A stretch of 60,387 nt of DNA from a virus. Below, one piece after another: positions 37,077-55,263 of this stretch. A program made the translations under genes and the position numbers. A model generated the notes under the pieces. It was not told the origin of the DNA and did not search any database. It was given only the letters and a program-made list of their open reading frames with translations. Every line of letters begins with the position of its first letter. The first letter of the stretch is position 1. Where the stretch lies: IMG/VR virus record IMGVR_UViG_3300050014_001170, positions 1-60,387 of that record; one strand, given 5' to 3'.

Positions 37077-37685
37077 TTGAAAAAAGTTGCTATATTCGGA
37101 GGTGCTTTCAATCCAATAACATTGGGGCATCTTCGAGTAGCAAAAGTTCTAATAGAAAGATTACCGGATTTTGAAATATGGTTGAGTCCTACTTATGAAT
37201 CAACTCTTAATAAAACCATGTTAGATCCAAAGCATCGGATTGAAATGTGTAAATTAGCAGTTCAAAAGTTTTCAAAACTCAAAGTTTTTGATTATGAAAT
37301 TCACCATAAAGTTTCATCGGGAACTCTGGATTTCTACAAAAAACTAAAAGAAAATACTTTATATAAGAATTATGATTTTTATTTTGTAATTGGAATGGAT
37401 CAAGCTAACAATATTGATAAGTGGGTAAATTCTATAGTTCTTATTAATGCTGTTAAATTTATTATTCTTCCAAGAGAAGGGGAAAAAGAAAAATCTTCTT
37501 GGTATAAAAATTTTAATCATATTTTTATTGACAAACCAGATCAAAGAAAAATATCTTCAACAGTAGTTCGAAAAAATTTACTAAAATTTTATGCTGGAGA
37601 TGAAGAAATTCTTAGAGATCTTAAAAAAGATTTAGCACCGGAAGTTTTAAAATACATTCTGAAAAACAAACTCTATGGAAATTAA
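37077..37685 (+). CDS. nadD: nicotinate/nicotinamide nucleotide adenylyltransferase (NadD-like, 202 aa)
   Basis: Starts at TTG, directly after the previous stop. FGGAFNPITLGHLRVAK is the nucleotidyltransferase loop ((T/H)xGH form) and ISSTVVRKNL near the C-terminus is the second conserved motif (ISSTxxR). Length matches NadD. It would make the dinucleotide NaAD or NAD from the mononucleotide plus ATP. Overlaps the following Nudix gene, pointing to a joint role in NAD metabolism. Confidence 0.82.
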   Translation: MKKVAIFGGAFNPITLGHLRVAKVLIERLPDFEIWLSPTYESTLNKTMLDPKHRIEMCKLAVQKFSKLKVFDYEIHHKVSSGTLDFYKKLKENTLYKNYDFYFVIGMDQANNIDKWVNSIVLINAVKFIILPREGEKEKSSWYKNFNHIFIDKPDQRKISSTVVRKNLLKFYAGDEEILRDLKKDLAPEVLKYILKNKLYGN

Positions 37686-38256
37686 ATTTAGTAACCGACC
37701 TAATAAGGTACATTTTGTTAAAGATATTGATGGGGATCGTGATATTTGGGAAAGTAGAAGTGCTGCTGCTGTTGCGGTTGTTTTTGGAAAATTCAAAGGA
37801 GATATTTATGTTCTTATGGAGAAAAGATCTCAAGAAATGGATCAACCTGGTAAATGGTGTCTTCCTTGCGGATATTTCGATTGGGATGAAAATGGTTGGC
37901 AAGCTATAACTCGGGAAATCTATGAAGAAACCTCTTTATTTCTTCCAAATTATGATAAAAATTTGGTAAATCGAAACAAAAGAAGACCTTTCTTTGTAAA
38001 TACAGAGATTACAGAAAACAGACAGAATATTGCTTTAATTTATGGAATGGTTTTTGATTTTAAAGTGATTTTGCCTCAAGAGGTTTTTCTTTATAGAAAT
38101 TCAGAAATTGAAGAAATTAAATGGGTTAAGCTTAATGAGATTAATGGATTAAAGGTAGCTTTTAATCATGATAAACGTATCTGCCAAGCAGAAAAGTATT
38201 TTTCAAAGCATTTATTGCCTTGGTGGAAGTGGTTAATAAAAAAGATATTTTGTTAA
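37675..38256 (+). CDS. Nudix hydrolase (193 aa)
   Basis: The Nudix box is GYFDWDENGWQAITREIYEET, with the REXXEE core intact (REIYEE) though the spacing to the first Gly is slightly unusual. Substrate may be a dinucleotide such as NADH or ADP-ribose given the adjacent NadD. Start overlaps the NadD gene by 11 nt. The C-terminus ends with a helix of basic residues. Confidence 0.8.
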   Translation: MEIKFSNRPNKVHFVKDIDGDRDIWESRSAAAVAVVFGKFKGDIYVLMEKRSQEMDQPGKWCLPCGYFDWDENGWQAITREIYEETSLFLPNYDKNLVNRNKRRPFFVNTEITENRQNIALIYGMVFDFKVILPQEVFLYRNSEIEEIKWVKLNEINGLKVAFNHDKRICQAEKYFSKHLLPWWKWLIKKIFC

Positions 38257-38297: not shown

Positions 38298-39257
38298 ATG
38301 GATACAGTAGTAACTCAATTGTTTACAGAAAAATTTCGTCCTCAAAAATTAGAGCAACTTATTGCCCCCGAAAGAGTTAAATCCCAATTAAAACATGGAT
38401 TAGTTCAGAATTTGCTTCTTTTTGGTTCTGCAGGAACAGGAAAAACCTCAACACTTTTTATTCTTGCAAAGGATCATCCTTATCTTTATATTAATGCCTC
38501 GGATCAAAGAGGAATTGATATTATTAGGGATAATGTAGTTCCTTTTTGCTCTTCAATATCTTTAGAAGAGGGTAAAGAAAAATTAAAGTGTGTTATATTA
38601 GATGAACTTGATGGAGCTACTGGGGAATTTTTTAAAGCATTACGTGCTGTTATGGAAAAATATGCTAAGACTACAAGATTTGTAGCTTCATGTAATTTTC
38701 TTAATAAGATTCCTGAACCCATATGGGAATCTAGATTTCTTCCTATTTCTTATGATCCGATTAATCCTGAAGAGGAAACATATTTAATAAATGAATATAA
38801 AGTACGAATTAGCGCAATATTAAAAGCAGCTCAAATAACTTTTACATTTGAGATTCTAGATAAATTTGTTCGCAATGATTTTCCAGATTTAAGAGCTTTA
38901 ATGAATAAAATACAATCACTTCATTTAAGAGGTGCTAAAGAGCTTTCTGCAGAAAATATGGCAACGAGTTCGGATTTTGGAGATCTTTTCCAACTTTGTC
39001 TTCAGCCATCAACAAAACCCTATGATAATTATAAATTAATTGTTAATCAATTTGCTTCAAAAATAGATGAAAGCCTTACAGCTTTGGGAAGTGATTTTCC
39101 CGAATATCTTAAAAATATGGCTCCTGCTCGTCTAGATAAATTACCATTAGTTCTTATTGCAACAGCTGAATATCAATATCAAAAGAGTTTTGTTATAGAT
39201 CCATTATTAACGCTTCTGGCTTGTGTTTTTAGAATACAGCAAATATTAAATTCATGA
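38298..39257 (+). CDS. sliding clamp loader ATPase, T4 gp44-like (319 aa)
   Basis: Walker A GSAGTGKTS (residues 43-51), Walker B VILDELD (99-105), sensor SRF-like SRFLP. N-terminus EKFRPQKLEQLI is the RFC/gp44 signature. The length equals that of T4 gp44. It opens the clamp on DNA with ATP, together with a small subunit not identified for certain here. Confidence 0.88.
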   Translation: MDTVVTQLFTEKFRPQKLEQLIAPERVKSQLKHGLVQNLLLFGSAGTGKTSTLFILAKDHPYLYINASDQRGIDIIRDNVVPFCSSISLEEGKEKLKCVILDELDGATGEFFKALRAVMEKYAKTTRFVASCNFLNKIPEPIWESRFLPISYDPINPEEETYLINEYKVRISAILKAAQITFTFEILDKFVRNDFPDLRALMNKIQSLHLRGAKELSAENMATSSDFGDLFQLCLQPSTKPYDNYKLIVNQFASKIDESLTALGSDFPEYLKNMAPARLDKLPLVLIATAEYQYQKSFVIDPLLTLLACVFRIQQILNS

Positions 39258-39509: not shown

Positions 39510-40682
39510 ATGATTAATGCAATATTTGACCTTAGCAATATGTTTTTTAGATCTCTCTTTATTGTAGGGGGATATGGATCTAAACAATACTCTTTTGATA
39601 ATCAAACTGAACTGGATCAATTGATGCGAAAAGTTGCTACTGATGTATCACAAGTAATTCGTATAATAAATCCTTCAAGAGTTATATTTGCTCTTGATTC
39701 TAAATCATGGAGAAAAGATATTTCTATTGATGAGAATGAAGGATATAAGGCTCAGCGTACAAAATCAGGTCTCATTAATTGGGATAACGTTTTTAAGATT
39801 CTTGGGGAATTTGCTGATATTCTTGAAACAAATGGTTTTATTATTTCAAAATTTGATAGAGCTGAGGCTGATGATATTGCAGCTTTATGGAAACAAGAAC
39901 TTCTTTTTAATCAGAATCAGCATGTTATTATAGTATCCGCAGATGAGGATGTAAGACAACTTGTTCAGTTTTATCCTTATACCCCTGAAAAATTTGCATT
40001 TTGTACAGTATTTAATCCATTTTTGCAAGGTAAAAATGCTTTCAAGAAACTTTATGTTCCCGAAAAATATTGGGATGAGTGGATTTTAGATGCTGATCCA
40101 GGTGATTTTTTCAACAGAGGAATTGATGTTGATAAAGAGGATTTCAAAAGAATCCTTAATGAGCCAAAAACAAAACTTGAAAAAATAAACGGAGAAAGAA
40201 TAGTTCTTCGAAAAATATTTTGCGGTGATGATGGCGATAATGTTCCTGCCATTTATACTTGGTTAAATGATAAAGGAAAAGAAGTAAGAATTACTGAATC
40301 TAAATTTGAAAAAATCATGGATTCTCTTGGAGAAAAAACTGATGCTTACGATCTTATGGACCAAAAAGAAATTATTTATGATCAACTTGCAAATATTTCG
40401 GGTCAACGTCCTTCATTTAATATGGCTGATCGGTTGAATCGTCAGCTTCAATTAGTTCATTTAGATCCTCTTATTTTTCCCGAAGAGTTTGTAAAAGTTT
40501 TTCAGGATAAAGTTACAGAAGAACTTGCCAAACCTCAGGTTCATCCTCAAAATTGGAATATGGTTTCAGTGCTTGAAGGAACTAGATATGTTATGGGTAA
40601 TGGAAAATACAAAAAACCTACAACAGAGGCTTCTATTTTTGGAGAAATAGATCGGATAAATCTTAATAAAGCACTTTTTTGA
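39510..40682 (+). CDS. rnh: RNase H-type 5'-3' exonuclease, T4 Rnh-like (390 aa)
   Basis: Acidic residues of the FEN/5' exonuclease family are visible: FDLSN near the start, KFDRAEADDIAALW, IVSADEDVRQL and CGDDGDNVPA (helix-hairpin region). Total length is a little above T4 Rnh (305). It removes RNA primers and 5' flaps during replication. Sits right after the clamp loader, as part of the replication group, behind a TTAAC-doublet promoter. Confidence 0.85.
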   Translation: MINAIFDLSNMFFRSLFIVGGYGSKQYSFDNQTELDQLMRKVATDVSQVIRIINPSRVIFALDSKSWRKDISIDENEGYKAQRTKSGLINWDNVFKILGEFADILETNGFIISKFDRAEADDIAALWKQELLFNQNQHVIIVSADEDVRQLVQFYPYTPEKFAFCTVFNPFLQGKNAFKKLYVPEKYWDEWILDADPGDFFNRGIDVDKEDFKRILNEPKTKLEKINGERIVLRKIFCGDDGDNVPAIYTWLNDKGKEVRITESKFEKIMDSLGEKTDAYDLMDQKEIIYDQLANISGQRPSFNMADRLNRQLQLVHLDPLIFPEEFVKVFQDKVTEELAKPQVHPQNWNMVSVLEGTRYVMGNGKYKKPTTEASIFGEIDRINLNKALF

Positions 40683-41146
40683 TGGACTCAACATATTCTA
40701 AAATGTGGAAAAAAGCCATAGGCAATTTTAGCATTCTAGAATTCGAACAAAGAATAAATGAAGAATTACCAAATCAACAAAAAATACAAAATAATATGAA
40801 ATACAAAATTTTTAATGTGAAAGATCTTTTATCTGAAATCCAATATGAAGGAGTTCGAAAAGGAACAAAAACAGAAGCATATTTGGAAAATGTTATTGAA
40901 ACTATTAATAAAACAGGAAAATATGTCTGGATTCAGTTTTTTCAACTTGTGGATGTATTCTATGTTGCGGTTCAGGTTTTGCCAACAACAGTAAAGAATG
41001 CTCAGGATGAAATTCGGGATCATTATGCAAATGCTGATGTTCGGGAAACTCAGCCTCAGACAATAAAAGGAACTTTATCCGGAGACAAAACACTGAAATC
41101 AGCTGACCCAGTTTCCTTAAAAACTTCTTTCCCCTGGAAACAATAA
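40682..41146 (+). CDS. unrecognised protein (154 aa)
   Basis: ATG at 40682 overlaps the exonuclease stop (TGATG). Alpha/beta protein; YIWIQ-like strands (YVWIQFFQLVDVFYVAVQVLPTT) and a Gln/Lys-rich tail ending SFPWKQ. Positionally a replication accessory candidate; no motif. Confidence 0.55.
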   Translation: MDSTYSKMWKKAIGNFSILEFEQRINEELPNQQKIQNNMKYKIFNVKDLLSEIQYEGVRKGTKTEAYLENVIETINKTGKYVWIQFFQLVDVFYVAVQVLPTTVKNAQDEIRDHYANADVRETQPQTIKGTLSGDKTLKSADPVSLKTSFPWKQ

Positions 41147-41184: not shown

Positions 41185-41739
41185 ATGGAAAAAATTCATC
41201 TCGTTTATCTTGCATTTCTTGGTATTGGAACTTTAGGATTACTAATGTCCCTTATACTCGGAGAATTCAGCCATGATGGTGTTGATTTTCATCACGATTT
41301 AGGTGGAATGGACCATGATGGGGATAGTGGGCAAGCTGATAGTCCTCGATTATTTTCTGTGAGAGCTATATTCGCTTTTCTCATGGCCTTTGGCATTGGA
41401 GGGGGAGCTATGTTTTTAACTGGAAATTCTATAGTTACTCAGATAATTGTTGGATTTCTTGCCGGAGCATTAACTGCTGTTCTAGTTTATTATATTATGA
41501 AATTTCTTTATTCTCAGCAAGGAAATGGTAATATAAATTCAGAGAGTTTTATAGGTAAATTAGCTGAAGTAACTGTGGAAACTACAAATAATGGGTCATG
41601 CCAGATAAAAGTAGATTCTGGGGGAGGAGATCAGCTTTTTATAGCTAAAGAAAAGAATTCTAAATCGGTCAAACAACATGAAAGTGTAAAAATTGTTGGC
41701 CGTATTGGAACTACGCTTATAATTGAAAAACAGTATTAA
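41185..41739 (+). CDS. NfeD-like membrane protein (184 aa)
   Basis: Membrane segments at residues 5-25 and two at 65-110 (IFAFLMAFGIGGGAMFLTG, IIVGFLAGALTAVLVYYIM), followed by a C-terminal OB-type beta domain (IGKLAEVTVETTNNGSCQIKVDSGGGDQLF ... VKIVGRIGTTLIIE). This is the YqiJ/NfeD layout, a partner of flotillins. The gene is 22 nt before the flotillin gene, as in bacterial operons. Confidence 0.75.
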   Translation: MEKIHLVYLAFLGIGTLGLLMSLILGEFSHDGVDFHHDLGGMDHDGDSGQADSPRLFSVRAIFAFLMAFGIGGGAMFLTGNSIVTQIIVGFLAGALTAVLVYYIMKFLYSQQGNGNINSESFIGKLAEVTVETTNNGSCQIKVDSGGGDQLFIAKEKNSKSVKQHESVKIVGRIGTTLIIEKQY

Positions 41740-41761
41740 TAATTAAAACAAACAAACAAAA

Positions 41762-43315
41762 ATGCAAAGTTATCTTATTTTAGGTGGAATTGTTCTTGGT
41801 GCGATTATTTTATTCGCTTCCCTATTGGCATTTGTCAATAAAAATTATATTCGAATCCCGCCCAACATGGCAGCTGTTATTTTTGGTCGTAAAAGGGTGA
41901 CCAAAGCAGCTGATGGAGCTAAAATTGAGAAAGGCTACAGATTAGTAGCTGGTGGTGGATTTTTCAAAATTCCTATTTTGGAAGAAGTTGAATTCATGAA
42001 CCTCTCAAACCGTACTCTTAATATTGAAGTCAAGGATGCTCCTAATAAAGATGGGGTTATGACAACAGTAGAAGGAGTAGCAAACGTCAAATTTGCTTCA
42101 GAAATAAATCTTCTTCAGGTAGCTGTAGAAAGATTTCTTGGCAAAAGCGATGATGATATTAATCAAAATATTCTTCAGAACCTTGAAGGTCACTTAAGAG
42201 CAGTGGTTGGAAGAATGTCAATGGAATCCCTTATTGGAGACAAAACTGAGTTAAACAAAGCAGTTCTTGAGGAAGCTAATGATGATTTTAACAAGATGGG
42301 TATAAATATAGACTTCCTTAATATTCAAAATATCAAGGATAGTGTTGATTATATCAAAAATCTTGGACGTAAAAGAGCAGCTCAAATAAAAAGGGATGCA
42401 GATATTGGTACTGCAGAAGCTGAAAGAGATTCACTTCAGAAAACAACTGATGCTAAAAGAGCAGGTATCGAACAGGCAAACATAAATGATCAGAAAATCT
42501 TTGAATCCAATAATTCTCGTGATGTAAAGAAAGCTGAAATGAAAGCTCTTACGGATACTCAAATTGAAATTGCAAATCAGGCAGGACCTCTTTCCCAGGC
42601 TAAAGCCCTCAAAGCAGTTGTTACAGCTCAGGCTGAAACAGAAACTGCACAGGAGGTTGCTCAAACTAAGGTTCAGGAGGCTCGTGCTCTTAAAATGGAA
42701 CAATCATATCAAGCTGATAAAATCGTTCCTGCAGAAGCTGATAAAAAATCTCGTATTATAACTGCTGAAGGAGCTCAACAATCAGTAATTATTGCAGCAG
42801 ATGGAGATAAACAAGCTACTATTAAGAAAGCAGAAGGGGAAGCTGAACGTATTCGTCTTACAAAGATAGCAGAAGCCGATGGTGAAGCTGCTAAAATTGT
42901 GAAAATGGGAGAGGCAGAAGGAAAAGCAATTTATGCTAAACTTTCTGGGGAAGCTAAAGGTATCAAGGAAAAAGCTGAGGCTTATGCTAAACTTGATCAG
43001 ACTGGTAAATTCCTCCAGGTACTTGAAGCATTACAGACTCTTGGTCCTAATGTTATTAAAGCATTCGCAGACGTTATGTCCGCTTCAACAGCACATCTTG
43101 CAAACATACAAGAAGTTAAAATTATCGATTTTGGCCGTGGGGGAAAAGATGGTTCAAGTGTGGGTAATTTCGGTGCAATTCCAGTAGAGGTTCTTACCAA
43201 ATTGGTTGAAGGACTTAAAGGAACAGGTTTCGATTTAACTAAACTTCTCAATTCCGTAGGGATTAAACCTGAAGATTTGGCTAAAGTAGTTACACAAGAA
43301 TCTAAAAAAGAATAA
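41762..43315 (+). CDS. flotillin (SPFH/YqiK family, 517 aa)
   Basis: N-terminal anchor (LGAIILFASLLAFVNKNYIRIPPNMAAVIFG), an SPFH domain to about residue 190 (IEVKDAPNKDGVMTTVEGVANVKFASE ... INIDFLNIQNIKDS), and a long Ala/Glu-rich coiled coil with repeated EAE/AEA heptads, then a Gly-rich tail. This is a full-length flotillin. It organises membrane microdomains and oligomerises with NfeD. Why a phage carries it is unknown. Confidence 0.88.
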   Translation: MQSYLILGGIVLGAIILFASLLAFVNKNYIRIPPNMAAVIFGRKRVTKAADGAKIEKGYRLVAGGGFFKIPILEEVEFMNLSNRTLNIEVKDAPNKDGVMTTVEGVANVKFASEINLLQVAVERFLGKSDDDINQNILQNLEGHLRAVVGRMSMESLIGDKTELNKAVLEEANDDFNKMGINIDFLNIQNIKDSVDYIKNLGRKRAAQIKRDADIGTAEAERDSLQKTTDAKRAGIEQANINDQKIFESNNSRDVKKAEMKALTDTQIEIANQAGPLSQAKALKAVVTAQAETETAQEVAQTKVQEARALKMEQSYQADKIVPAEADKKSRIITAEGAQQSVIIAADGDKQATIKKAEGEAERIRLTKIAEADGEAAKIVKMGEAEGKAIYAKLSGEAKGIKEKAEAYAKLDQTGKFLQVLEALQTLGPNVIKAFADVMSASTAHLANIQEVKIIDFGRGGKDGSSVGNFGAIPVEVLTKLVEGLKGTGFDLTKLLNSVGIKPEDLAKVVTQESKKE

Positions 43316-43448: not shown

Positions 43449-44186
43449 ATGGTAATTTATAAAACAGCCAATTTAATAAATGGAAAATATTATATCGGAA
43501 AAGATTCTAAAAATTATCTAAATTACTTAGGCTCCGGAATTGCCATTAAAAAAGCTATAAAAAAATACGGCAAAGAAAATTTTACTAAAGAGATATTATG
43601 TTTTTGTAAATCTTTAGAAGAACTAGCAGATAAGGAAAAAGAATATATCACAACAGAAATTATAAATGATCCGAGTTCATATAATATGATATTAGGAGGA
43701 ATTGGTGGATCTGTTAAAGGTAGAAAAAATATTCTTAAAGGAAAAACATATGAAGAAATTTTTGGAAAAGAAAAAGCAGAGGAACTAAAAAAGATCAGAT
43801 CCACAGCATCAAAGGGTCAAAATAATGGAATGTATGGAAAACACTTAACTGCAGGATCCAAAAATGGAATGTATGGAAAACCTTCTCCAAATAGAAACAA
43901 AGAACTTTCTAAAAAGACAAAAGATAAAATTAAAAATAAATTTATAGATAAAAGTCTTATTGATCGCTTTGGGTTGGAAGAAGCTATTAATATCAAGAAA
44001 AGAATGTCTATTTCTCAGAAAAATAGAGATCGAAAATACTTAGTAGATCAAATAGATAATGAAGGAAAAAAAATTGGAGAATTTAAAACTATTGTGGAAG
44101 CTATAAAAAAACTTAATTTAAGCTCCAAAAAAGCTTATGCTAATTCATATAAAGAATTTAAATTTATAAAAAATGGGACCATTTGA
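43449..44186 (+). CDS. GIY-YIG homing endonuclease (245 aa)
   Basis: N-terminus VIYKTANLINGKYYIGKDS is the GIY-YIG core, followed by the usual YLGSG and acidic residue. Middle part has two GMYGK repeats (NUMOD3-type DNA-binding units). C-terminus is a Lys-rich helix-turn-helix. Lies between the flotillin operon and an unrelated gene, beside the rRNA-like hairpin. The ATG is directly preceded by an AT-rich leader. Confidence 0.85.
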   Translation: MVIYKTANLINGKYYIGKDSKNYLNYLGSGIAIKKAIKKYGKENFTKEILCFCKSLEELADKEKEYITTEIINDPSSYNMILGGIGGSVKGRKNILKGKTYEEIFGKEKAEELKKIRSTASKGQNNGMYGKHLTAGSKNGMYGKPSPNRNKELSKKTKDKIKNKFIDKSLIDRFGLEEAINIKKRMSISQKNRDRKYLVDQIDNEGKKIGEFKTIVEAIKKLNLSSKKAYANSYKEFKFIKNGTI

Positions 44187-44595
44187 ACTGTCTAAGATTA
44201 TTTTTGAATCTCCTGGAGAATATTCAGATTTAACAAAAGGAGATAAAAGATCCAATTTTTTTATTTTGCAGAGAAGATTCGCTATTAATTTTCCTATACA
44301 AGCTCAATTACTTCAACACATAAGAATTAATATGGAAGCTACCATTGATTGGTGGCAACGATATATCAGAAGTAAAAAATATCCGAAAACCCCGTTTTGG
44401 ATGTATATACCAGGGGTGAAAAAAAATCAGGAGAAAGAAGAGAAAAAAACCAAAATTACTTCTGAAATGATTTCTGAATTTTGCAGATTTTATCAAAAGG
44501 ATCCCAAACAAATTAAGGATGCTATAAAATTTTATCCTATGGAAATGCAAAAAGAGATGAATGATTTTCAAAAGATGATAAAAGAATTAAGATGA
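44173..44595 (+). CDS. unrecognised protein, possible clamp-loader accessory (140 aa)
   Basis: Overlaps the end of the homing endonuclease gene. Sequence RSNFFILQRRFAINFPIQAQLLQHIRINMEATIDWWQRYIR reminds me of small subunits of phage clamp loaders, but this is weak. C-terminal part is helical (QKDPKQIKDAIKFYPMEMQKEMNDF). Coupled to the next gene by 4 nt. Confidence 0.4.
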   Translation: MGPFELSKIIFESPGEYSDLTKGDKRSNFFILQRRFAINFPIQAQLLQHIRINMEATIDWWQRYIRSKKYPKTPFWMYIPGVKKNQEKEEKKTKITSEMISEFCRFYQKDPKQIKDAIKFYPMEMQKEMNDFQKMIKELR

Positions 44596-46284: not shown

Positions 46285-47088
46285 ATGCTAATGACTAATT
46301 ATCAATTTACATTAAAAAGAAGTCCTATTGATCTTAGAGATTTAATGTTATGCTCTGTTTATTCAGCTGACATAAAACTTCCAACAACCTATGATCTTCG
46401 CCCAGAAATGCCTCCTATTAGGGATCAAGGAAATCAGGGTTCCTGTTCTGCTCAAACAGCTTCTGAAATGAAAGAATGGCAAGAAAGAGCCAATATGGGA
46501 TATGAAAAATATATGTCTCCTCAATTTATTTATAATTTGAGAGAAAATTATGAGGAAGAGGGAATGACCCCAAGGGATACAATGAAAATTCTTAATAAAA
46601 TTGGAGTTGTTTATGAAAAAAATTATACATATGGAAAAATAGAACGACTTGATCCCAGCAGTATGAGCCTTGAACTTTTAAATGAAGCTGCTAGGTATAT
46701 AATTTCAGGATATGCAAGAATTAATTCGGTTGAGGGATTAAAAAAAGCTTTATTTACTAATGGTCCTTGCTATATGGCATTTCCAGTTTATAATCCTGAA
46801 AAATGGGAATTCTGGAAACCTGATTATGCAGGGCAGAAAGCATTAGGAGGACATGCAGTTTCTGCTGTTGGTTGGTTGAAAAATAGTTTTATTATTCGTA
46901 ATCACTGGACTGATCAATGGGCAGATAATGGATATACCTATCTTAAATTTACCGATTGGGGTATGCAATGGGAAGCTTGGACAACTATTGATGCAGATTC
47001 TCTAGAAAATTTTAATAGAAAAGCAGTTGCAACCTATGATTTACCAGGATTTTTTGCTAAACTTTTTTATAAAAATTTACATAAATAA
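46285..47088 (+). CDS. papain-like (C1A) cysteine peptidase (267 aa)
   Basis: DLRPEMPPIRDQGNQGSCSAQTASEM contains the catalytic Cys (C54, after DQGxQGSC). GGHAVSAVGW carries the catalytic His and FIIRNHWTDQW the Asn, where the usual NSWG reads NHWT. No signal peptide, so cytoplasmic or virion-associated. Paralogue of the protein at 57978, sharing the KEWQE and SPQFIYN segments. Confidence 0.82.
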   Translation: MLMTNYQFTLKRSPIDLRDLMLCSVYSADIKLPTTYDLRPEMPPIRDQGNQGSCSAQTASEMKEWQERANMGYEKYMSPQFIYNLRENYEEEGMTPRDTMKILNKIGVVYEKNYTYGKIERLDPSSMSLELLNEAARYIISGYARINSVEGLKKALFTNGPCYMAFPVYNPEKWEFWKPDYAGQKALGGHAVSAVGWLKNSFIIRNHWTDQWADNGYTYLKFTDWGMQWEAWTTIDADSLENFNRKAVATYDLPGFFAKLFYKNLHK

Positions 47089-48952: not shown

Positions 48953-49024
48953 GGCGCTGATGCTCAATGGATGGGTACCGGTCTGCAAAACCGGATTAGA
49001 TGGGTTCGATTCCCACCGGCGCCT
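48953..49024 (+). tRNA. tRNA-Cys(GCA)
   Basis: Acceptor GGCGCTG pairs with CGGCGCC, anticodon stem CCGGT/ACCGG with loop CTGCAAA, T arm GTTCGATT. First tRNA of the array. Confidence 0.9.
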
Positions 49025-49026
49025 CT

Positions 49027-49096
49027 AGGTTGTAGTAAGATAATGGGTTACTTCGCTTTGGTTGCAAAATTACACCCTGTTCAAATTTCTCAACTT
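49027..49096 (+). ncRNA. GTAG/TTACTTCG element, copy a
   Basis: Outer helix AGGTTG/CAACTT, inner helix GGGT/ACCC, conserved GTAGTAAG upstream of the inner helix, TTACTTCG just after it, and TTCAAATTTCTCA after the 3' inner strand. Same layout as copies b and e with different helix sequences. Family unknown. Confidence 0.6.
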
Positions 49097-49141
49097 AACT
49101 ATTAAAGGTAAGTAACGATGCTAAGGGAACCTTCAAATAAT

Positions 49142-49181
49142 GTAGGATAAAAGTTAAAACCAGTATAGATCTGGATCCTAC
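49142..49181 (+). ncRNA. small hairpin with 7-bp closing helix
   Basis: GTAGGAT pairs perfectly with ATCCTAC and encloses CCAG-TATAGAT-CTGG, a 4-bp stem with a 7-nt loop. Noncoding; unassigned. Confidence 0.4.
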
Positions 49182-49188
49182 AAAAATT

Positions 49189-49268
49189 AAGCTGTAGTGA
49201 GTAAAGAGGTTACTTCGTGAGATTCCAAAACATCTAATAAAAGACACCTCTTTCAAATTTCTCAGTTT
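49189..49268 (+). ncRNA. GTAG/TTACTTCG element, copy b
   Basis: Outer helix AAGCTG/CAGTTT, inner helix AAAGAGGT/ACCTCTTT (8 bp), conserved GTAGTGAG, TTACTTCG and TTTCAAATTTCTCA in the same positions as copy a. Confidence 0.65.
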
Positions 49269-49272
49269 TAAT

Positions 49273-49346
49273 GCCGATGTAGCTCAGTTGGTCAGAGCAG
49301 CGCACTTGTAATGCGCAGGTCGGGGGTTCGAATCCCTTCATCGGCT
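49273..49346 (+). tRNA. tRNA-Thr(TGT)
   Basis: Acceptor GCCGATG/CATCGGC, anticodon stem GCGCA/TGCGC with loop CTTGTAA, canonical D and T arms. Confidence 0.95.
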
Positions 49347-49495
49347 CAAAGTACATGAATTCCTTAAGTGGGGTTTTGGAGAAAAGTAATTACGTAATAT
49401 CTTCTCTCGGGTATATTGGCAGCTTGCGATAGCATCGCATTGAAAGAAAATGCAACTGTAGCCACGATCAGTTTTTCAACATGTATTTTAAAAAT
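49347..49495 (+). other. 149-nt gap with hairpins
   Basis: No gene. Contains GAGAA/TTCTC, TGCGAT-AGC-ATCGCA and ACTG/CAGT hairpins. Possibly processed spacer RNA; nothing identified. Confidence 0.35.
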
Positions 49496-49569
49496 TGCCC
49501 TATGGTGTAATAGGTTAACATACCGCACTTTGGATGCAGTGAGTGTAGGTTCGAACCCTACTGGGGCAA
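49496..49569 (+). tRNA. tRNA-Gln(TTG)
   Basis: Acceptor TGCCCTA/TGGGGCA, anticodon loop CTTTGGA, T arm with TTCGAAC. Confidence 0.9.
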
Positions 49570-49579
49570 CGAAATGTTC

Positions 49580-49618
49580 CTATATCGTCAAAGGTTAGCT
49601 ACCGGCGATAGAATATAG
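49580..49618 (+). ncRNA. hairpin in tRNA spacer
   Basis: CTATATCG pairs with CGATA(GAA)TATAG around GGT-TAGCT-ACC. A further CTCGAG pair at 49670/49680 forms another hairpin before the next tRNA. Unassigned. Confidence 0.35.
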
Positions 49619-49689
49619 AGAGCGATAGATAGGTCCGGACTTAATTCTATCTTACCTTACTCGAGGTGGTAAAAGTACTCTCGAGACTT

Positions 49690-49762
49690 CGGGGTGTGGC
49701 CTAATTGGCAAGGTACTACATTTGGGATGTAGGGAGTGTGGGTTCGAGTCCCGCCACCCCGA
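49690..49762 (+). tRNA. tRNA-Pro(TGG)
   Basis: Acceptor CGGGGTG/CACCCCG, anticodon stem CTACA/TGTAG with loop TTTGGGA (G37 as in true tRNA-Pro). Confidence 0.9.
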
Positions 49763-49770
49763 CTAAAATT

Positions 49771-49927
49771 GAGGTATCTACCCTTGTGAAGAAAGGGGCC
49801 TGGCGGTCAACCCAGGTGCGGATTATTCTGATAAGGAAAAAATAGTATATCGGAAATCTATCTATAAGTGTACATAAAAATAGAAAGTAAGATATATGAA
49901 AATAGGGTTCAAATCCCCCATACCTCA
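49771..49927 (+). ncRNA. tRNA-like RNA with long insertion
   Basis: GAGGTAT at 49771 pairs perfectly with ATACCTC at 49920, and arms resembling a D stem (CCCTT/AAGGG), an anticodon stem (CCTGG/CCAGG) and a T loop (GGG-TTCAAAT-CCC) occur in order. The anticodon loop has 8 nt (CGGTCAAC) and about 85 nt are inserted before the T arm. Either a tRNA gene with an insertion or a decayed tRNA. Confidence 0.45.
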
Positions 49928-49945
49928 CTAATTTAAATTAATAAA

Positions 49946-50254
49946 ATGGGAAAAGAGGAAATTAAAAAAGAATTTATTGAATGCGAATGTGGCACTCATC
50001 TATTACAAATTATTCATAATGCTGAGTATTTTGATGATATAGAAACAAATAAACAAAGAATTCGTCAAGAATTTTGGTTAGCAATGTTTAATTACGGAAA
50101 TCAAAAACCAAGTTTTTGGCAAAGAATAAGAATTATTTGGAATTATCTCAAAACTGGAAAAATGCATGAGGATCAAATGATTCTTACTACAGAAGAAGCT
50201 CAGAAACTTGCAATTTTTATAAATAATAATATTATTGAAACAGAAAAAGATTGA
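49946..50254 (+). CDS. unrecognised protein inside the tRNA array (102 aa)
   Basis: Soluble protein with CECGTHLLQIIHNAEYF near the start and a helical end; beta-alpha. It resembles accessory proteins of unknown role. Not a homing endonuclease by motif, although it lies among tRNAs. Confidence 0.55.
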   Translation: MGKEEIKKEFIECECGTHLLQIIHNAEYFDDIETNKQRIRQEFWLAMFNYGNQKPSFWQRIRIIWNYLKTGKMHEDQMILTTEEAQKLAIFINNNIIETEKD

Positions 50255-50370
50255 ATGTATATTAAAGCGAAGCCTGGAATACACGGATCTGCAGAATCCT
50301 AATAGCTTGGGGGATACGAATTGCTAAATGACCAGTATTATATATGTTCCCTAATATGCATTTTTTAAAT

Positions 50371-50441
50371 TGTCCTCTCGAATAATGGTAGTTCACATGT
50401 CTCTGGAACATGGAGTTTGGGTTCGAATCCCGCGAGGACAA
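50371..50441 (+). tRNA. tRNA-Gln(CTG)
   Basis: Acceptor TGTCCTC/GAGGACA, anticodon stem CATGT/ACATG with loop CTCTGGA, T arm GGGTTCGAATCCC. Confidence 0.9.
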
Positions 50442-50489
50442 CCACGGATTTTTGAGTATCGAACATGAATATATAAATAAAATATATTC

Positions 50490-51098
50490 ATGACTAAAAA
50501 ATTTAATTATTTTTATAGAGTAGAAAATCTCATTAATGGAAAATTTTATTTTGGCGTACATAGTACAAATAATTTGGAAGATAAGTATTTAGGTTCAGGA
50601 AAACGAATATCATATGCTATAAAAAAATACGGTAAAAATAATTTTCAAAAAGAAATTTTAGAAAGCTTTGAGACTTTTAAGAAAGCTTTGGATTATGAAG
50701 AATTTATTGTTTCCGAAGAATTATTAAAAGATCCCAGTTGTTATAATTTGATGAAAGGCGGAAAAGGAGGAAATAACGGTAGAGGAGAAGAATGGTATAA
50801 ACAGCATTGTTCAGAAGCTGGAAAAAATTGTATGAAAGATCCTATTTATAGAGAAATTTTTATAAAAAAACAACGGGAGAATTGGAAAAATATTTCTATT
50901 CATACAGGATTTAAAGATAAAAAACATTCAGAAGAAGCCAAAAAGAATATAGGTAAAGGAAATTCTTTATCTCAAAAAGGAGAAAAAAATTCTCAATTCG
51001 GAACTTGCTGGATAACAAATGGAATTAATAATATGAAAATTCCAAAAGATGAATTAAATCTCTGGCTCCAAGAAAATTGGAAAAGGGGAAGAGTATAA
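50490..51098 (+). CDS. GIY-YIG homing endonuclease (202 aa)
   Basis: YFYRVENLINGKFYFGVHSTNN is the GIY-YIG core; KYLGSGKRISYAIKKYGKNNFQKEIL contains the catalytic Arg/Glu region. A helix-turn tail (HSEEAKKNIGKGNS) follows. It stands between tRNA-Gln(CTG) and the Ser tRNA element, a typical insertion in phage tRNA arrays. Confidence 0.85.
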   Translation: MTKKFNYFYRVENLINGKFYFGVHSTNNLEDKYLGSGKRISYAIKKYGKNNFQKEILESFETFKKALDYEEFIVSEELLKDPSCYNLMKGGKGGNNGRGEEWYKQHCSEAGKNCMKDPIYREIFIKKQRENWKNISIHTGFKDKKHSEEAKKNIGKGNSLSQKGEKNSQFGTCWITNGINNMKIPKDELNLWLQENWKRGRV

Positions 51099-51253
51099 AC
51101 TGTAGTAATGTTAAGAGTTACTTCGATCTGTCTTGAAAACAGGTGTCCGTAAGGACGTGGAGGTTCGAGTCCTTCTACTCTTGGGGAACTTAGGGTATGA
51201 CGAAATTGGTAGACGTGCTTTAGAAAAAACACTCTAAACGACTTTCTCAGTTT
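51097..51253 (+). ncRNA. GTAG/TTACTTCG element, copy c, with embedded tRNA-Ser-like part
   Basis: 5' AAACTG (51097) pairs with 3' CAGTTT (51248); GTAGTAATG, AGAGT and TTACTTCG follow as in copies a, b and e, and ACTCT plus GACTTTCTC precede the 3' strand. The apical part is much longer and contains the tRNA-Ser-like sequence at 51113 and a degraded tRNA-Leu-like sequence. Confidence 0.5.
51113..51183 (+). tRNA. tRNA-Ser(TGA) lacking a D arm
   Basis: Acceptor AAGAGT/ACTCTT (6 bp), anticodon stem CTGT/ACAG with loop CTTGAAA, long variable arm GTCC-GTAA-GGAC and T arm GGAGG-TTCGAGT-CCTTC are all present, but only eight nucleotides (ACTTCGAT) stand where the D arm should be. Confidence 0.6.
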
Positions 51254-51258
51254 AAATT

Positions 51259-51333
51259 CGGGGTACGATCCACATGGTGAGGTTGCCGGCATTGGAAGCC
51301 GGATTATTGGGGGTTCGAGTCCCTCTATCCCGA
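51259..51333 (+). tRNA. tRNA with anticodon TGG (Pro-like)
   Basis: Acceptor CGGGGTA/TATCCCG (one G-U), anticodon stem CCGGC/GCCGG with loop ATTGGAA, T arm GGGGG-TTCGAGT-CCCTC. The D arm is weak and A37 differs from usual tRNA-Pro, so the identity is tentative. Confidence 0.65.
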
Positions 51334-51352
51334 CTAAATTGTTTGCTTAAAT

Positions 51353-51467
51353 ATGAATGTATGCGTAGGCGATTACAGCCTTCATAAGTAGCAGCCGGTG
51401 CAAACCGTGGTTAAGTCCTGCTTCCAATAACGAAACGCATAAGCCGATCAAGCGGAAAAACATTCAT
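51353..51467 (+). ncRNA. structured RNA with nested closing helices and 16S-like phrases
   Basis: ATGAATGT (51353) pairs with ACATTCAT (51460), and inside ATGCGT pairs with ACGCAT. The interior reads AGCAGCCG and GGTTAAGTCC followed by AATAACGA, phrases also found in conserved 16S rRNA regions. Noncoding; no family recognised. Confidence 0.5.
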
Positions 51468-51474
51468 GGTAAAG

Positions 51475-51556
51475 ATAACTATTTGATCCAGTCTCTACAG
51501 GGTAGTTCATTACTGCACTGTATGTACGAAGGTATAAAACGCTTGGGGATAGTTAT
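51475..51556 (+). ncRNA. structured RNA with 8-bp closing helix
   Basis: ATAACTAT at 51475 pairs perfectly with ATAGTTAT at 51549, with an internal CAGT/ACTG stem. Unassigned. Confidence 0.4.
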
Positions 51557-51590
51557 TCCACTTGATAATTTGGACAAACAATTTAATTTT

Positions 51591-51666
51591 GCCCTCTTAG
51601 CAGAAATGGCACGTGCATCACACTTAGGATGTGATAATTATGTGGGTTCGAATCCCACAGAGGGTA
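51591..51666 (+). tRNA. tRNA-Leu(TAG)
   Basis: Acceptor GCCCTCT/AGAGGGT (G1-U72), anticodon stem ATCACA/TGTGAT with loop CTTAGGA, T arm GTGGG-TTCGAAT-CCCAC. The variable arm is short, unlike normal tRNA-Leu. Confidence 0.85.
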
Positions 51667-51727
51667 CAAAAATTCAAGTCTGGCATCTATGCCATTTTTA
51701 TCATAAATATATAGAATAAATAAAATT

Positions 51728-52558
51728 ATGTATAAATGTGAATGTGGAAGACAATTTGAAAAACAAAATTCTCTAAATACCCATGCAAGATTTTGTAAAT
51801 CTTATATCAGAAAAAATAAAATTTCCAAATATAGAGAAAATGAAAATTTATATAAATGTGAATGCGGAAGAATATTTAATAATTCTCAAGGATTAAATGG
51901 ACATTTTTGTTATTGTTTAATTCATCGAAACGGGAAACCCCCCATGGAAATAAAAGTAAATTGGGGGAATTCGGGAAATCAAAATAAACCTTGGTGCAAA
52001 GGATTAAATAAAGAAAATAATTTATCATTATTAAATGCTTCAAATAGCTTAAAAGAAAATTATTCGGGGAAAGATGCTATATGGTATGGAAAACATCATT
52101 CTGATGAAACAAAAAGAATATTATCCGAAAAAAGAATGAAATTTTTACAGGATAATCCAAATAGTAATATTAAATGGTTTTCTATAAGCAATGGGGAAAA
52201 GGAGATTAAGGTTCAAGGAAAATGGGAATTGAATATTGCAAATTGGTTGAATGAAATTAATGAAAAATGGGATCGAATAACTATAAAATATAAAAATAGG
52301 AGGTATACCCCAGATTTTTATTTAATTGATAGAGATGAATATATTGAAGTTAAGGGATGGTTGAAGGATAGAGATTTATATAAAATGTTTTTAGTTTTAC
52401 AGGAAAATCCTGATATTAAAATAAGATTATTACAAAAAAAATTATATAAAAAAATAGATAAAATAAAAATTGAGGATATTCCCATATTTAATGAAATTTA
52501 TTCTTTAGATAATGTGGATTTTAATAAATTTAAAAATGTTTTTAATTTGCTCCCTTAG
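51728..52558 (+). CDS. zinc-finger PD-(D/E)XK homing endonuclease (276 aa)
   Basis: Two zinc knuckles at the start (YKCECGRQFEKQNSLNTHARFC and YKCECGRIFNNSQGLNGHFC), a NUMOD3-like middle (YGKHHSDETKRILSEKRM), and the nuclease core YTPDFYLIDRDEYIEVKGW. Same family as 11778 and 55398. Its stop codon (52556-52558) lies inside the 5' acceptor strand of the next tRNA. Confidence 0.82.
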   Translation: MYKCECGRQFEKQNSLNTHARFCKSYIRKNKISKYRENENLYKCECGRIFNNSQGLNGHFCYCLIHRNGKPPMEIKVNWGNSGNQNKPWCKGLNKENNLSLLNASNSLKENYSGKDAIWYGKHHSDETKRILSEKRMKFLQDNPNSNIKWFSISNGEKEIKVQGKWELNIANWLNEINEKWDRITIKYKNRRYTPDFYLIDRDEYIEVKGWLKDRDLYKMFLVLQENPDIKIRLLQKKLYKKIDKIKIEDIPIFNEIYSLDNVDFNKFKNVFNLLP

Positions 52559-52619
52559 CCCAACTAGGCAGATCAGACTTAAACCCTGTACAGTATCGGT
52601 TCGAATCCGATAGGGAGTA
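52549..52619 (+). tRNA. tRNA-Leu(TAA)
   Basis: Acceptor GCTCCCT/AGGGAGT (G1-U72), anticodon loop CTTAAAC with an imperfect stem (A-C mismatch), T arm TCGGTTCGAATCCGA. Short variable arm. First ten nucleotides overlap the endonuclease gene. Confidence 0.8.
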
Positions 52620-52623
52620 CAAA

Positions 52624-52697
52624 CGGAATGTATATCAGTTGGCTAGATTACCTGATTAGGGTTCAGGAGGTCGAGGGTTCGAGTCTCTCCATTCCGA
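52624..52697 (+). tRNA. tRNA-Pro(AGG)
   Basis: Acceptor CGGAATG/CATTCCG, anticodon stem CCTGA/TCAGG with loop TTAGGGT, giving anticodon AGG, rare outside tRNA-Arg(ACG) for A34. T arm GAGGG-TTCGAGT-CTCTC. Confidence 0.75.
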
Positions 52698-52738
52698 CAT
52701 TTTTATTAAAAACATTTTTTTCCTAAGAAATTAATTTG

Positions 52739-52746
52739 TATATTTG
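52739..52746 (+). promoter_or_regulatory. promoter box TATATTTG
   Basis: Consensus TAnnTTTG box after the tRNA-Pro(AGG), upstream of a structured leader and the secreted protein gene at 52839. Confidence 0.6.
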
Positions 52747-52749
52747 CTC

Positions 52750-52838
52750 TATTGAATGAGACAAAGAGTTTGTCAGAAACTTACCCTTAATAAGGTAAAG
52801 CGGAACTCGGCTTAAGGCAGCTGTTAAAATAAAAAAAT
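52750..52838 (+). ncRNA. structured 5' leader
   Basis: GACAAA-GAG-TTTGTC (52760-52774), TTACC/GGTAA (52781-52798) and GCGGAACTCGGC... form successive hairpins between the promoter and the ATG at 52839. It could regulate translation or be a separate RNA; contains GGAACTCGGC, a phrase also present in 23S rRNA. Confidence 0.45.
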
Positions 52839-53309
52839 ATGAAACGCCTATTAACTTTTATAACATTATTACTGCTTTACACTACCACCAGTTTTGGTAC
52901 TTGTAAAATATCTAATAACACAGATGCTAAGAATACTCCTTTATTTGAAAGAGTTTTTGCTCTTGTTTCTAAAGATTTAGATATTGATACTTGTAATTTA
53001 GAAATAACTATAAGTTATAGTATTTTTAAGGAACCAGTTAAAGCAGCAACAATAAGAAGCGCAGAGAATAGTTATGTTATAAATATAAGCGAATATATCC
53101 TTGAATGGGATAAACCTGAAATCTTTATACATGAATTAGTTCATATATCTCAAATAGAACATCATAAACTTGTTATATACAGATATTCTGCTTGGTTTGA
53201 AGGTAAAACATACACCAATGATATACCTTATGAAGAAAGACGGTATGAGAATGAAGCAATGAAAGGTTCAAGAGAATTAACTAAGAAATATTGTAAAGAA
53301 TTAAAATAG
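52839..53309 (+). CDS. secreted HExxH metalloprotein (156 aa)
   Basis: Signal peptide (KRLLTFITLLLLYTTTSFG). The mature part contains FIHELVHISQIEHH, an HExxH motif with a further His downstream, and an acidic segment YEERRYENEAM that could give the third zinc ligand. Small gluzincin-like protein; a protease in the periplasm or outside the cell is plausible. Behind its own promoter with a structured leader. Confidence 0.65.
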   Translation: MKRLLTFITLLLLYTTTSFGTCKISNNTDAKNTPLFERVFALVSKDLDIDTCNLEITISYSIFKEPVKAATIRSAENSYVINISEYILEWDKPEIFIHELVHISQIEHHKLVIYRYSAWFEGKTYTNDIPYEERRYENEAMKGSRELTKKYCKELK

Positions 53310-53716
53310 GTAGCATTCTTTTTTAATATAAAAAGTTCTTTAAAATATTGGATGTGAATACCGATCGGAGATTGGTATCTGGTGCGGCGGGGATCGAGAC
53401 CCCAACTTGGTCGGCTCAAATCCGGCCAGGGCATGGATTAGAATAATCAGAGATGCTCTGTTCTAATGCAAAAAACAGAAAATCATCCAAAAATATTCCA
53501 ACTGAAGAGATCCAAAGGCTTCCAAACCCTGACCAATGGATCGTCCAAAGGGACTACTGGAGGGAATATATTCGGAAGTTGGATTAAACTGACAACGAGT
53601 ATATGCCATGCGGAAGGTAGGACGCCGGGCTTCGACACTCAAGCTAAGTCTTCGGACAGAGTGTTCAGACTCAAGACTAAAGGGATGTGAGAGCTGGTTG
53701 GAATTTTTATAATTTT
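53310..53716 (+). ncRNA. 407-nt noncoding, strongly structured region
   Basis: Strong hairpins in order: ATACCGAT-CGGAG-ATTGGTAT, GGGG-ATCGAGA-CCCC, GGTCGG-CTCAAAT-CCGGCC, TTAGAA...CAGAG-ATG-CTCTG...TTCTAA, and a long-range TATTCCAAC (near 53494) with GTTGGAAT (near 53696). The first three resemble tRNA-like arms without a matching acceptor. No gene fits. Not a family I recognise. Confidence 0.5.
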
Positions 53717-53798
53717 GCCGACATCGCATAGTGGCAATTGCAAGGGACTGTAAATCCCTCGCCTACGGGCTTCGAAGGTTCGAGTCCTTCTGGCGGCA
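53717..53798 (+). tRNA. tRNA-Tyr(GTA)
   Basis: Acceptor GCCGACA/TGGCGGC (one mismatch), anticodon stem AGGGA/TCCCT with loop CTGTAAA, long variable arm and T arm AAGG-TTCGAGT-CCTT. Confidence 0.9.
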
Positions 53799-53850
53799 CT
53801 GAAAAAGCGGAAGAATGAGAATCCGGCCTTGAATATATAGAATAAAAACT

Positions 53851-54279
53851 ATGACTCAAGGAAAAATTAAAGTTACTGATCAAGAAATTCTTGATATTTT
53901 TAATACGGATACAACTCTTAATAAAGCTTCAGCTAAGTTAAATATGTCTTCGATTTCATTATGTCGAAGAACTAAAAAGCTTGGTTTAAAATGGGTAGAT
54001 AAAAAGAATCATGGAGGAGGATTCGAAATTCCTCTTTCTGAAATTCTTGAAGGAAAACATCCTTACTATCAGACTGGTCATCTAAAATTGAGGTTGATAA
54101 AAAAGGGGATTAAAGAAAATAAATGTGAAGAATGTCATATAACAGATTGGAATGGAAAATCATTGAATATGCAACTAGATCATATAGATGGTAATCCTCA
54201 TAATCATCTTTTAGAAAATTTAAAAATGTTATGTCCCAATTGTCACAGTCAAACAGAAACATTTTGCGGTAAAATTTAA
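53851..54279 (+). CDS. HNH endonuclease with helix-turn-helix (142 aa)
   Basis: The N-terminus looks like a helix-turn-helix (DQEILDIFNTDTTLNKASAKLNMSSISLCRRTKKLGL). From residue 90, CEECHITDWNGKSLNMQLDHIDGNPHNHLLENLKMLCPNCHSQT is a full HNH core with zinc-binding Cys pairs. Free-standing homing enzyme beside tRNA-Tyr. Confidence 0.85.
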   Translation: MTQGKIKVTDQEILDIFNTDTTLNKASAKLNMSSISLCRRTKKLGLKWVDKKNHGGGFEIPLSEILEGKHPYYQTGHLKLRLIKKGIKENKCEECHITDWNGKSLNMQLDHIDGNPHNHLLENLKMLCPNCHSQTETFCGKI

Positions 54280-54295
54280 TTTAAAACAAAATACA

Positions 54296-54466
54296 ATGAG
54301 TAAATTTCGAATTGATTATGATGATCGGCCTGACGATATTATTGATAAAATCAATCAGGCATTAATAACTCATGGATTATCAATAATAAAAATTGAGGAT
54401 CCGAGTGATGAAGAAGAGGAATCTCAACATTATAAAATTGTTAAGTTTCTTCCGGATGAAGGATAA
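54296..54466 (+). CDS. small acidic protein (56 aa)
   Basis: Reads MSKFRIDYDDRPDDIIDKINQALITHG ... SDEEEESQHYKIVKFLPDEG. Very acidic, beta-alpha. Unknown function; overlaps the next gene's start. Confidence 0.5.
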   Translation: MSKFRIDYDDRPDDIIDKINQALITHGLSIIKIEDPSDEEEESQHYKIVKFLPDEG

Positions 54467-54764
54467 GATTCTAGAAACCCAATGGGGTGTAATAAATTAT
54501 AATTATTACAAAGATGAAAAATATCCTAATGGACTCTTAATTTTTATGGGAAGTTATATTCCTAGAAAATTTAGGGGACAAGGTAAATTCAAAGAAATGG
54601 TAAATGAATTATTTTCTCAATTTCAAAAAGGAACAGAAGTTCAACTTGCTATTGCAAATAAGCATTTAATTCACATGTTTGAAGAAATGGGATTTGAAAA
54701 AACAGAAGATATTGAATACTGGGGAAGTCCTAGTAATACAATAAATTTGAAAGGAAAAATATAA
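54456..54764 (+). CDS. GNAT-fold acetyltransferase-like protein (102 aa)
   Basis: The start ATG 54456 is preferred over the longer frame. IPRKFRGQGKFKEMVNEL corresponds to the acetyl-CoA binding motif (R/QxxGxG) of GNAT proteins, here short and slightly changed (RGQGK), and the strand-helix order is right (LLIFMGSYIPRKF... EVQLAIANKHLIHMFEEMGFEK). Short for the family; substrate unknown. Confidence 0.65.
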   Translation: MKDKILETQWGVINYNYYKDEKYPNGLLIFMGSYIPRKFRGQGKFKEMVNELFSQFQKGTEVQLAIANKHLIHMFEEMGFEKTEDIEYWGSPSNTINLKGKI

Positions 54765-54768
54765 ATAT

Positions 54769-54854
54769 TGTCCAGGTGGCGGAATTGGTAGACGCGTTGG
54801 TTCGAGGGGCCAATGTTAGAAATAACGTGTGGGTTCGAGTCCCATTCTGGACAC
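54769..54854 (+). tRNA. tRNA-Leu(GAG)
   Basis: Acceptor TGTCCAG/CTGGACA, long variable arm GTTA-GAAA-TAAC, T arm TGGG-TTCGAGT-CCCA. The anticodon loop by position is TCGAGGG, so anticodon GAG with C at position 33 instead of the universal U. Confidence 0.75.
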
Positions 54855-54868
54855 AAAGCAGATTATAT

Positions 54869-54902
54869 GATAGTAACTGTAAGGAGAGCGCTCTCCACTA
54901 TC
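54869..54902 (+). ncRNA. hairpin with perfect 14-nt palindrome
   Basis: GATAGT pairs with ACTATC and encloses GGAGAGCGCTCTCC, a perfect palindrome. Confidence 0.4.
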
Positions 54903-54906
54903 CTAT

Positions 54907-55172: not shown

Positions 55173-55175
55173 CAA

Positions 55176-55258: not shown

Positions 55259-55263
55259 CTAAT

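What the first reader, a model, noticed from the sequence alone, without database searches (positions are those of the whole stretch)
41185..43315. NfeD-flotillin operon in a phage
A full-length flotillin with its NfeD partner is a bacterial membrane-organising operon. In a phage it may rearrange the host membrane for virion assembly or counter membrane-based defence.
Basis: partly seen in the sequence, partly recalled or inferred. Interest (0 to 1): 0.6.

Follow-up and report, generated by a model that had tools for sequence, protein, structure and literature searches.

The report
NfeD-flotillin membrane operon in large phages
A large virus of Bacteroidota bacteria carries, as its own long-kept genes, a two-gene membrane-organising operon (NfeD plus flotillin) of the kind bacteria use; like pairs turned up in other phages and in many large contigs classed as viral, and no role for them has been tested.

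Summary
41185-41739 encodes an NfeD2/YuaF-type protein (three membrane helices plus OB-fold) and 41762-43315 a full-length SPFH2 flotillin, 22 bases apart. They are real phage genes: they follow a Lak-like clamp loader and RNase H, the same layout recurs in three other contigs, and two more phage lineages carry the pair at a second site. The six flotillins form one clade (100/100) under purifying selection as strong as RNase H, and do not group with the Bacteroidota flotillins sampled (AU p 5e-72), so contamination by such a host is excluded; only four Bacteroidota sequences were available. The pair is accessory: close relatives lack it in the (incomplete) records held. It is not unique: NfeD-flotillin pairs also occur in crAss-like phage csAssE-Sib, the 469-kb Sinorhizobium phage Phosso and about 14 further distinct IMG/VR contigs, acquired several times independently. 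Most likely it builds a phage-owned scaffold on the host inner membrane that stabilises membrane proteins or a membrane patch during infection; that function is inferred from homologues, not shown. I found no paper describing the pair in phages, though lone SPFH genes in phages have been listed since 2006.

The parts
41185..41739 (+). NfeD2/YuaF-type membrane protein, 184 aa
   Evidence: ORF; AF2 model and PDB matches all NfeD; hhalign to cellular NfeD2 97.8-98.5%
41263..41343 (+). NfeD Asp/His-rich loop between helix 1 and helix 2 (about residues 27-53)
   Evidence: read from the sequence; low-confidence region of the model; acidic also in L062, L068, L041, L038
41560..41730 (+). NfeD C-terminal OB-fold (residues 126-182), expected to bind flotillin
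   Evidence: five strands, pLDDT about 72-83; fold matches; binding inferred from PMC11222466
41762..43315 (+). SPFH2 flotillin, 517 aa
41762..41845 (+). flotillin N-terminal hydrophobic anchor (residues 1-28)
   Evidence: hydropathy, helix in model
41852..42424 (+). SPFH/Band 7 domain (residues 31-221)
   Evidence: PF01145 4.6e-27
42350..42988 (+). long Ala/Glu/Lys-rich helical (coiled-coil) region, residues 197-409
   Evidence: model secondary structure, composition
38298..39257 (+). clamp loader large subunit (gp44-like), core gene upstream of the pair
   Evidence: phrog_168 6.6e-53; nearest named phage Lak-A2, 49.8%
39510..40682 (+). RNase H / 5'-3' exonuclease-like core gene
   Evidence: PF02739 4.7e-11, phrog_107 1.6e-22; nearest named phages Lak, 36-37%
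40679..41146 (+). 155-aa ORF directly upstream of NfeD; function unknown
   Evidence: kept in L003 and L045, a shortened copy in L064; no convincing family match
43449..44186 (+). GIY-YIG homing endonuclease next to the pair
   Evidence: phrog_314 1.4e-32; PADLOC HEase 4.6e-22
44173..44595 (+). 140-aa core ORF that follows RNase H in nearly all relatives; marks the downstream edge of insertion site A

Best explanation
The locus is a phage-resident NfeD2-SPFH2 (YuaF-FloT type) operon: an accessory gene pair of a large Bacteroidota phage distantly related to the Lak megaphages. Shown by sequence: both proteins, their pairing, long residence in phages, purifying selection, presence at two alternative sites, and like pairs in other phages and viral contigs. 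Inferred from studied homologues: NfeD sits in the host inner membrane and its OB-fold holds the flotillin coiled coil; the flotillin binds the cytoplasmic face and oligomerises into a ring or cage that sets off a membrane patch. Inferred with less certainty: the phage uses this scaffold during infection to keep the inner membrane and phage or host membrane proteins stable and working, in place of or on top of host flotillin.
For: Identity of both proteins. Same layout in L003, L045 and (from the flotillin on) L002; second site in L062 and L068/L069. Six-member phage clade 100/100. Flotillin dN/dS 0.09-0.22 among site-A copies, RNase H 0.12-0.14; third-position GC of the pair within the phage range. 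The whole pair, not flotillin alone, recurs: csAssE-Sib, Phosso, 17 of 17 further IMG/VR loci with visible upstream, about 14 distinct. Function of homologues: FloA-NfeD stabilises unfolded proteins at membrane microdomains (PMC11222466); flotillin cage on membranes (PMC11260169). Neighbouring genes differ between phage groups, which fits a self-contained membrane unit.
Against: No expression, localisation or phenotype data. Some phages carry flotillin without NfeD (L047, L048, MT835492, KIT04), so the partner is not always needed. The pair is missing from the held stretches of close relatives, so it is dispensable. NfeD-flotillin contact in the phage pair was not modelled.
Confidence: 0.5

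Rival explanations
1. Membrane tether for phage DNA replication: the scaffold anchors or concentrates the phage replisome at the inner membrane, which is why it lies just after the clamp loader and RNase H.
For: Site A lies directly after clamp loader, RNase H and a small ORF; in csAssE-Sib the pair also lies among primase, DnaB-like helicase, exonuclease and helicase genes.
Against: In L062 and L068 the pair is elsewhere, past a cell-wall enzyme and an HD hydrolase; many other phage pairs have different neighbours. Close relatives replicate with the same core genes and no detected pair.
Confidence: 0.15
2. Counter-defence or superinfection exclusion: the phage flotillin competes with or disperses host flotillin domains, or seals the membrane, so that membrane-acting abortive-infection systems or incoming phages fail.
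For: Accessory, patchy distribution and several independent acquisitions are typical of arms-race genes; csAssE-Sib carries a near-copy (69%) of a Bacteroides-type flotillin.
Against: No defence-related neighbour identified by family; PADLOC has no match for the pair. Flotillin itself evolves slowly, unlike many anti-defence genes; NfeD is faster, but that is also true of cellular NfeD2 proteins here.
Confidence: 0.2
3. Selfish passenger: the pair rides with homing endonucleases and gives the phage nothing.
For: A GIY-YIG endonuclease lies beside the pair in the window, L002 and L068, and one lies in the corresponding gap of L064.
Against: Flotillin dN/dS about 0.1 at dS about 1; both genes are kept together at two sites; like pairs occur in unrelated phages.
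Confidence: 0.05
4. Host contamination or assembly chimera.
For: Flotillin operons are ordinary bacterial genes; L003 was binned in a bacterial MAG.
Against: The same layout with phage core genes in separate assemblies, a phage-only clade on a long stem, and rejection of grouping with the sampled Bacteroidota.
Confidence: 0.01

Closest known systems
Bacterial NfeD2-SPFH2 operons (B. subtilis yuaF-yuaG/floT; E. coli yqiJ-yqiK; Thermomicrobium roseum pair, L040)
   Same: Gene order NfeD then flotillin, domain architecture, membrane helices plus OB-fold; T. roseum flotillin is the closest cellular sequence found (36%).
   Different: Encoded in phage genomes, forms its own clade on a long stem, falls below the FloT and Flot curated cut-offs.
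S. aureus FloA-NfeD (PMC11222466)
   Same: Works-like model: SPFH protein plus OB-fold NfeD partner at the membrane.
   Different: FloA belongs to another SPFH size class and its NfeD differs; mechanism in the phage is untested.
Flotillin-NfeD-like pair of crAss-like phage csAssE-Sib (OR575929; L038, L049)
   Same: Phage-borne pair in the same order; host also expected to be a Bacteroidota.
   Different: Separate acquisition: 69% to Bacteroides flotillin and clades with it; preceded by an acyl carrier protein gene.
SPFH pair of Sinorhizobium phage Phosso (PV764938; L053)
   Same: NfeD2-type gene followed by an SPFH gene in a 469-kb phage (YqiJ_N 1.1e-18, YqiJ_OB 3.3e-6).
   Different: Groups with the Agrobacterium YqiK-type flotillin.
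Stand-alone phage SPFH/'lipoprotein' genes (phrog_200; 44RR, Aeh1, RB43; PMC1524935)
   Same: SPFH domain in phages; the window flotillin matches phrog_200 over the SPFH part (2.4e-13).
   Different: No NfeD partner is reported for them in the passages read; the window protein is a full flotillin with a long coiled coil.

Membership tests
SPFH2 (prokaryotic flotillin) | SPFH/Band 7 domain behind an N-terminal membrane anchor | tested here: met
   PF01145 4.6e-27; hydrophobic residues 1-28
SPFH2 (prokaryotic flotillin) | closer to flotillins than to stomatin, prohibitin or HflK/C | tested here: met
   flotillin-2 2.2e-42 against stomatin 8.4e-6; fold search
SPFH2 (prokaryotic flotillin) | long Ala/Glu-rich coiled-coil region | tested here: met
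FloT equivalog (NF058507) / Flot domain (PF15975) | score above the curated cut-off | tested here: not met
   207 of 700 bits; 21.4 of 27 bits: it works like FloT but is not filed as the FloT equivalog
NfeD2 (YuaF/YqiJ type) | membrane helices followed by a C-terminal OB-fold | tested here: met
NfeD2 (YuaF/YqiJ type) | sequence homology to cellular NfeD2 | tested here: met
   hhalign 97.8 and 98.5%; Pfam NfeD not reached
NfeD2-SPFH2 operon | NfeD directly upstream of the SPFH2 gene on the same strand | tested here: met
   operon convention from PMC2636767
NfeD2-SPFH2 operon | physical NfeD-flotillin complex at the membrane | not testable with these tools
   no multimer modelling or experiment available
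Known anti-phage defence system | PADLOC model match | tested here: not met
   no match for either protein

The most novel reading that the evidence does not exclude
Large phages recurrently build their own NfeD-flotillin cage on the host inner membrane as an infection compartment: a viral membrane microdomain that isolates phage membrane proteins, DNA entry or replication from host stress and defence, with a conserved two-gene signature.
Probability: 0.25. Interest if true: 0.85.

Novelty: new variant of a known kind. Interest (0 to 1): 0.55.

Why it matters
Bacterial flotillin microdomains are a central but unsettled topic, and few phage genes are known to reorganise the host membrane. Recurrent recruitment of the complete NfeD-flotillin pair, rather than flotillin alone, says that the two genes are the functional unit and gives natural minimal versions to study. 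It also makes testable, by gene removal in a phage, whether a membrane scaffold matters during infection.

Tried and rejected
Contamination or chimera: rejected by synteny in separate assemblies. Recent pick-up from a Bacteroides- or Persicobacter-like host: rejected by tree and AU test. One origin for all phage flotillins: rejected, p 3e-39. Finding NfeD by single-sequence tblastn or peptide-pattern scan of phages gave nothing, because NfeD diverges fast; solved by profile and structure. Promoter and terminator scans gave no more than chance. Calling the 155-aa ORF gp62 was considered and dropped: no profile supports it. The idea that the pair belongs to the replication block was weakened by the second site. 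Terminase (phrog_2) was found in only 5 of 14 long records with phage-type flotillins, so the viral nature of the others rests on IMG/VR's classification. MT835570 (L044), a phage-collection record, reads as actinobacterial DNA and was treated as cellular.

Full report
WHAT IS THERE. Two intact ORFs lie at the stated coordinates: 41185-41739 (184 aa) and 41762-43315 (517 aa), same strand, 22 bases apart. The longer one has an N-terminal hydrophobic anchor, an SPFH domain (PF01145, 4.6e-27) and a long Ala/Glu/Lys-rich helical region. Among SPFH proteins it is nearest to flotillins: human flotillin-2 at 2.2e-42 against stomatin at 8.4e-6, and the solved flotillin complex is the first fold match. 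It falls below the curated cut-offs for the FloT equivalog and the Flot domain, so it is a divergent SPFH2 protein. The shorter one has no Pfam hit alone, but its model is three helices plus an OB-like barrel; every PDB match at E <= 0.001 is an NfeD-family domain or complex, including YuaF, and profile comparison to cellular NfeD2 proteins gives 97.8-98.5%.

IT IS A PHAGE LOCUS. The window is an IMG/VR virus record. The pair follows a clamp loader and RNase H; the window also has two RNA ligases, one of the tail-fibre-attachment type, an RlaP-like nucleotidyltransferase, homing endonucleases and 15 tRNAs. Clamp loader and RNase H both find the Prevotella Lak megaphages as nearest named relatives (49.8% and 36.6%), but in the Lak-A2 stretch read the clamp loader has other neighbours, and no flotillin was detected in Lak. 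The host is most likely a Bacteroidota: PorP/SprF and a T9SS type B sorting domain are encoded, Shine-Dalgarno motifs are nearly absent, and leaders are A-rich at -12 to -10 and -4 to -3; reading the last as Bacteroidota-like rests on general knowledge.

CONSERVATION AND MOBILITY. The order RNase H - 155-aa ORF - NfeD - flotillin is kept in L003 (a 4.4-kb phage contig binned in a bacterial MAG) and L045; L002 begins inside its flotillin and continues with the same genes as the window. In L062 and L068/L069 (these two near-identical) the pair lies instead about 2 to 2.5 kb past the 171-aa core ORF, beyond a probable cell-wall enzyme and an HD hydrolase (HD family). Close relatives (L063, L064, L065/66, L067, L070-L075) keep the core genes but show no flotillin in the records held, all of which may be incomplete. 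Carriers and non-carriers are interleaved on a weakly resolved RNase H tree. Site-A flotillins have dN/dS 0.09-0.22, like RNase H, with dS near or above 1. The pair is therefore an old, selected, accessory unit. A GIY-YIG endonuclease sits beside it in the window, L002 and L068, and in the gap of L064, which suggests, without proving, how it moves.

WHERE IT COMES FROM. Six phage flotillins form one clade (100/100) on a long stem (about 1.25 changes per site), in a set with Thermomicrobium, Acaryochloris and Tsukamurella whose support varied between trees (97/97, 85/74, 97/93) and which involves long branches. Joining the window-type phages with the sampled Bacteroidota flotillins is rejected (p 5e-72). 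Only four Bacteroidota sequences (Bacteroides, Phocaeicola, two Persicobacter) were available, so a donor elsewhere in that phylum stays open.

NOT UNIQUE. csAssE-Sib (crAss-like, complete genome) carries an NfeD-like gene and a flotillin 69% identical to that of Bacteroides. Phosso carries a YqiJ-type NfeD and an SPFH gene. Vibrio phage KIT04 has a flotillin behind a short 82-aa membrane protein that is not a clear NfeD. A scan with the Bacteroidota-type flotillin gave 18 further IMG/VR loci; NfeD lies directly upstream in all 17 where upstream is visible, about 14 of them distinct. L047/L048 and gut record MT835492 have a flotillin without NfeD. One origin for the phage flotillins of the first tree is rejected, and the larger tree spreads them over at least five places. 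Not every one of these contigs is proven viral: terminase was found in 5 of 14.

HOW IT PROBABLY WORKS. In S. aureus, NfeD binds flotillin through its OB-fold and the complex holds unfolded proteins at membrane microdomains (PMC11222466). Human flotillins form a closed cage on the membrane (PMC11260169). Bacterial SPFH2 genes are regularly paired with NfeD2 (PMC2636767). The phage pair keeps the parts needed for this. I infer a phage-owned inner-membrane scaffold that stabilises membrane proteins or a membrane patch during infection. The varied neighbours across phages argue for a general membrane service and against one fixed partner. Replication tethering and counter-defence remain open rivals.

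NOVELTY. SPFH genes in phages have been listed since 2006 (PMC1524935), with unclear role (PMC13239085), and 'flotillin family protein' labels exist in GenBank records. In the open-access library searched I found no description of NfeD-flotillin pairs in phages; the epsilon crAss-like paper that reports CrAssE-Sib does not mention flotillin. Subscription papers were not searchable, so this is absence from one library only.

Noticed in passing
window 25214-26814 (+), with 23975-25176 upstream: A T9SS-like cassette: a protein with a T9SS type B sorting domain (TIGR04131, 2.6e-18) followed directly by a PorP/SprF outer-membrane protein (PF11751, 1.6e-74). Only two weak matches in the phage collection and none in 16 related records.
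   Followed up: partly
L047 10650-13151 (IMGVR_UViG_3300021256_000064) and L048 10388-12877: An 833-aa (829-aa) protein with a major vault protein shoulder domain (PF11978, 9.3e-24) and Vault_3 repeat, about 1 kb downstream of a flotillin, in 140-kb viral contigs.
   Followed up: partly
L038 5158-7626 (csAssE-Sib): An acyl carrier protein gene overlaps the start of the NfeD-like gene, giving an ACP-NfeD-flotillin row; a possible link to lipid chemistry.
   Followed up: no
L045 5174-5317: A second, broken 48-residue start of a flotillin gene just downstream of the intact one: a partial duplication.
   Followed up: no
window 37077-38256 (+): Adjacent cytidylyltransferase-like (NMNAT-like) and Nudix genes, a likely split NAD-metabolism pair.
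   Followed up: no
window 46285-47088 and 57978-58823 (+): Two papain-family (C1) cysteine proteases in one phage fragment; the first is kept in many relatives.
   Followed up: no
window 48953-57395 (+): 15 tRNA genes, several of the same specificity (three each of Gln, Pro, Glu and Leu), in a gene-poor stretch.
   Followed up: no
window 19775-20809 (+): RNA ligase with an HNH-endonuclease-like N-terminal part (phrog_24030, 1.9e-127).
   Followed up: no
L003 (MWEH01000017.1): A phage contig binned into the MAG 'Firmicutes bacterium ADurb.Bin080'.
   Followed up: yes
L052 (NZ_OY725925.1, Bacteroides finegoldii 'plasmid 23'): Carries truA, PhoH, a purine-synthesis gene and other chromosomal-type genes around the flotillin: probably a chromosomal contig labelled as plasmid.
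   Followed up: no
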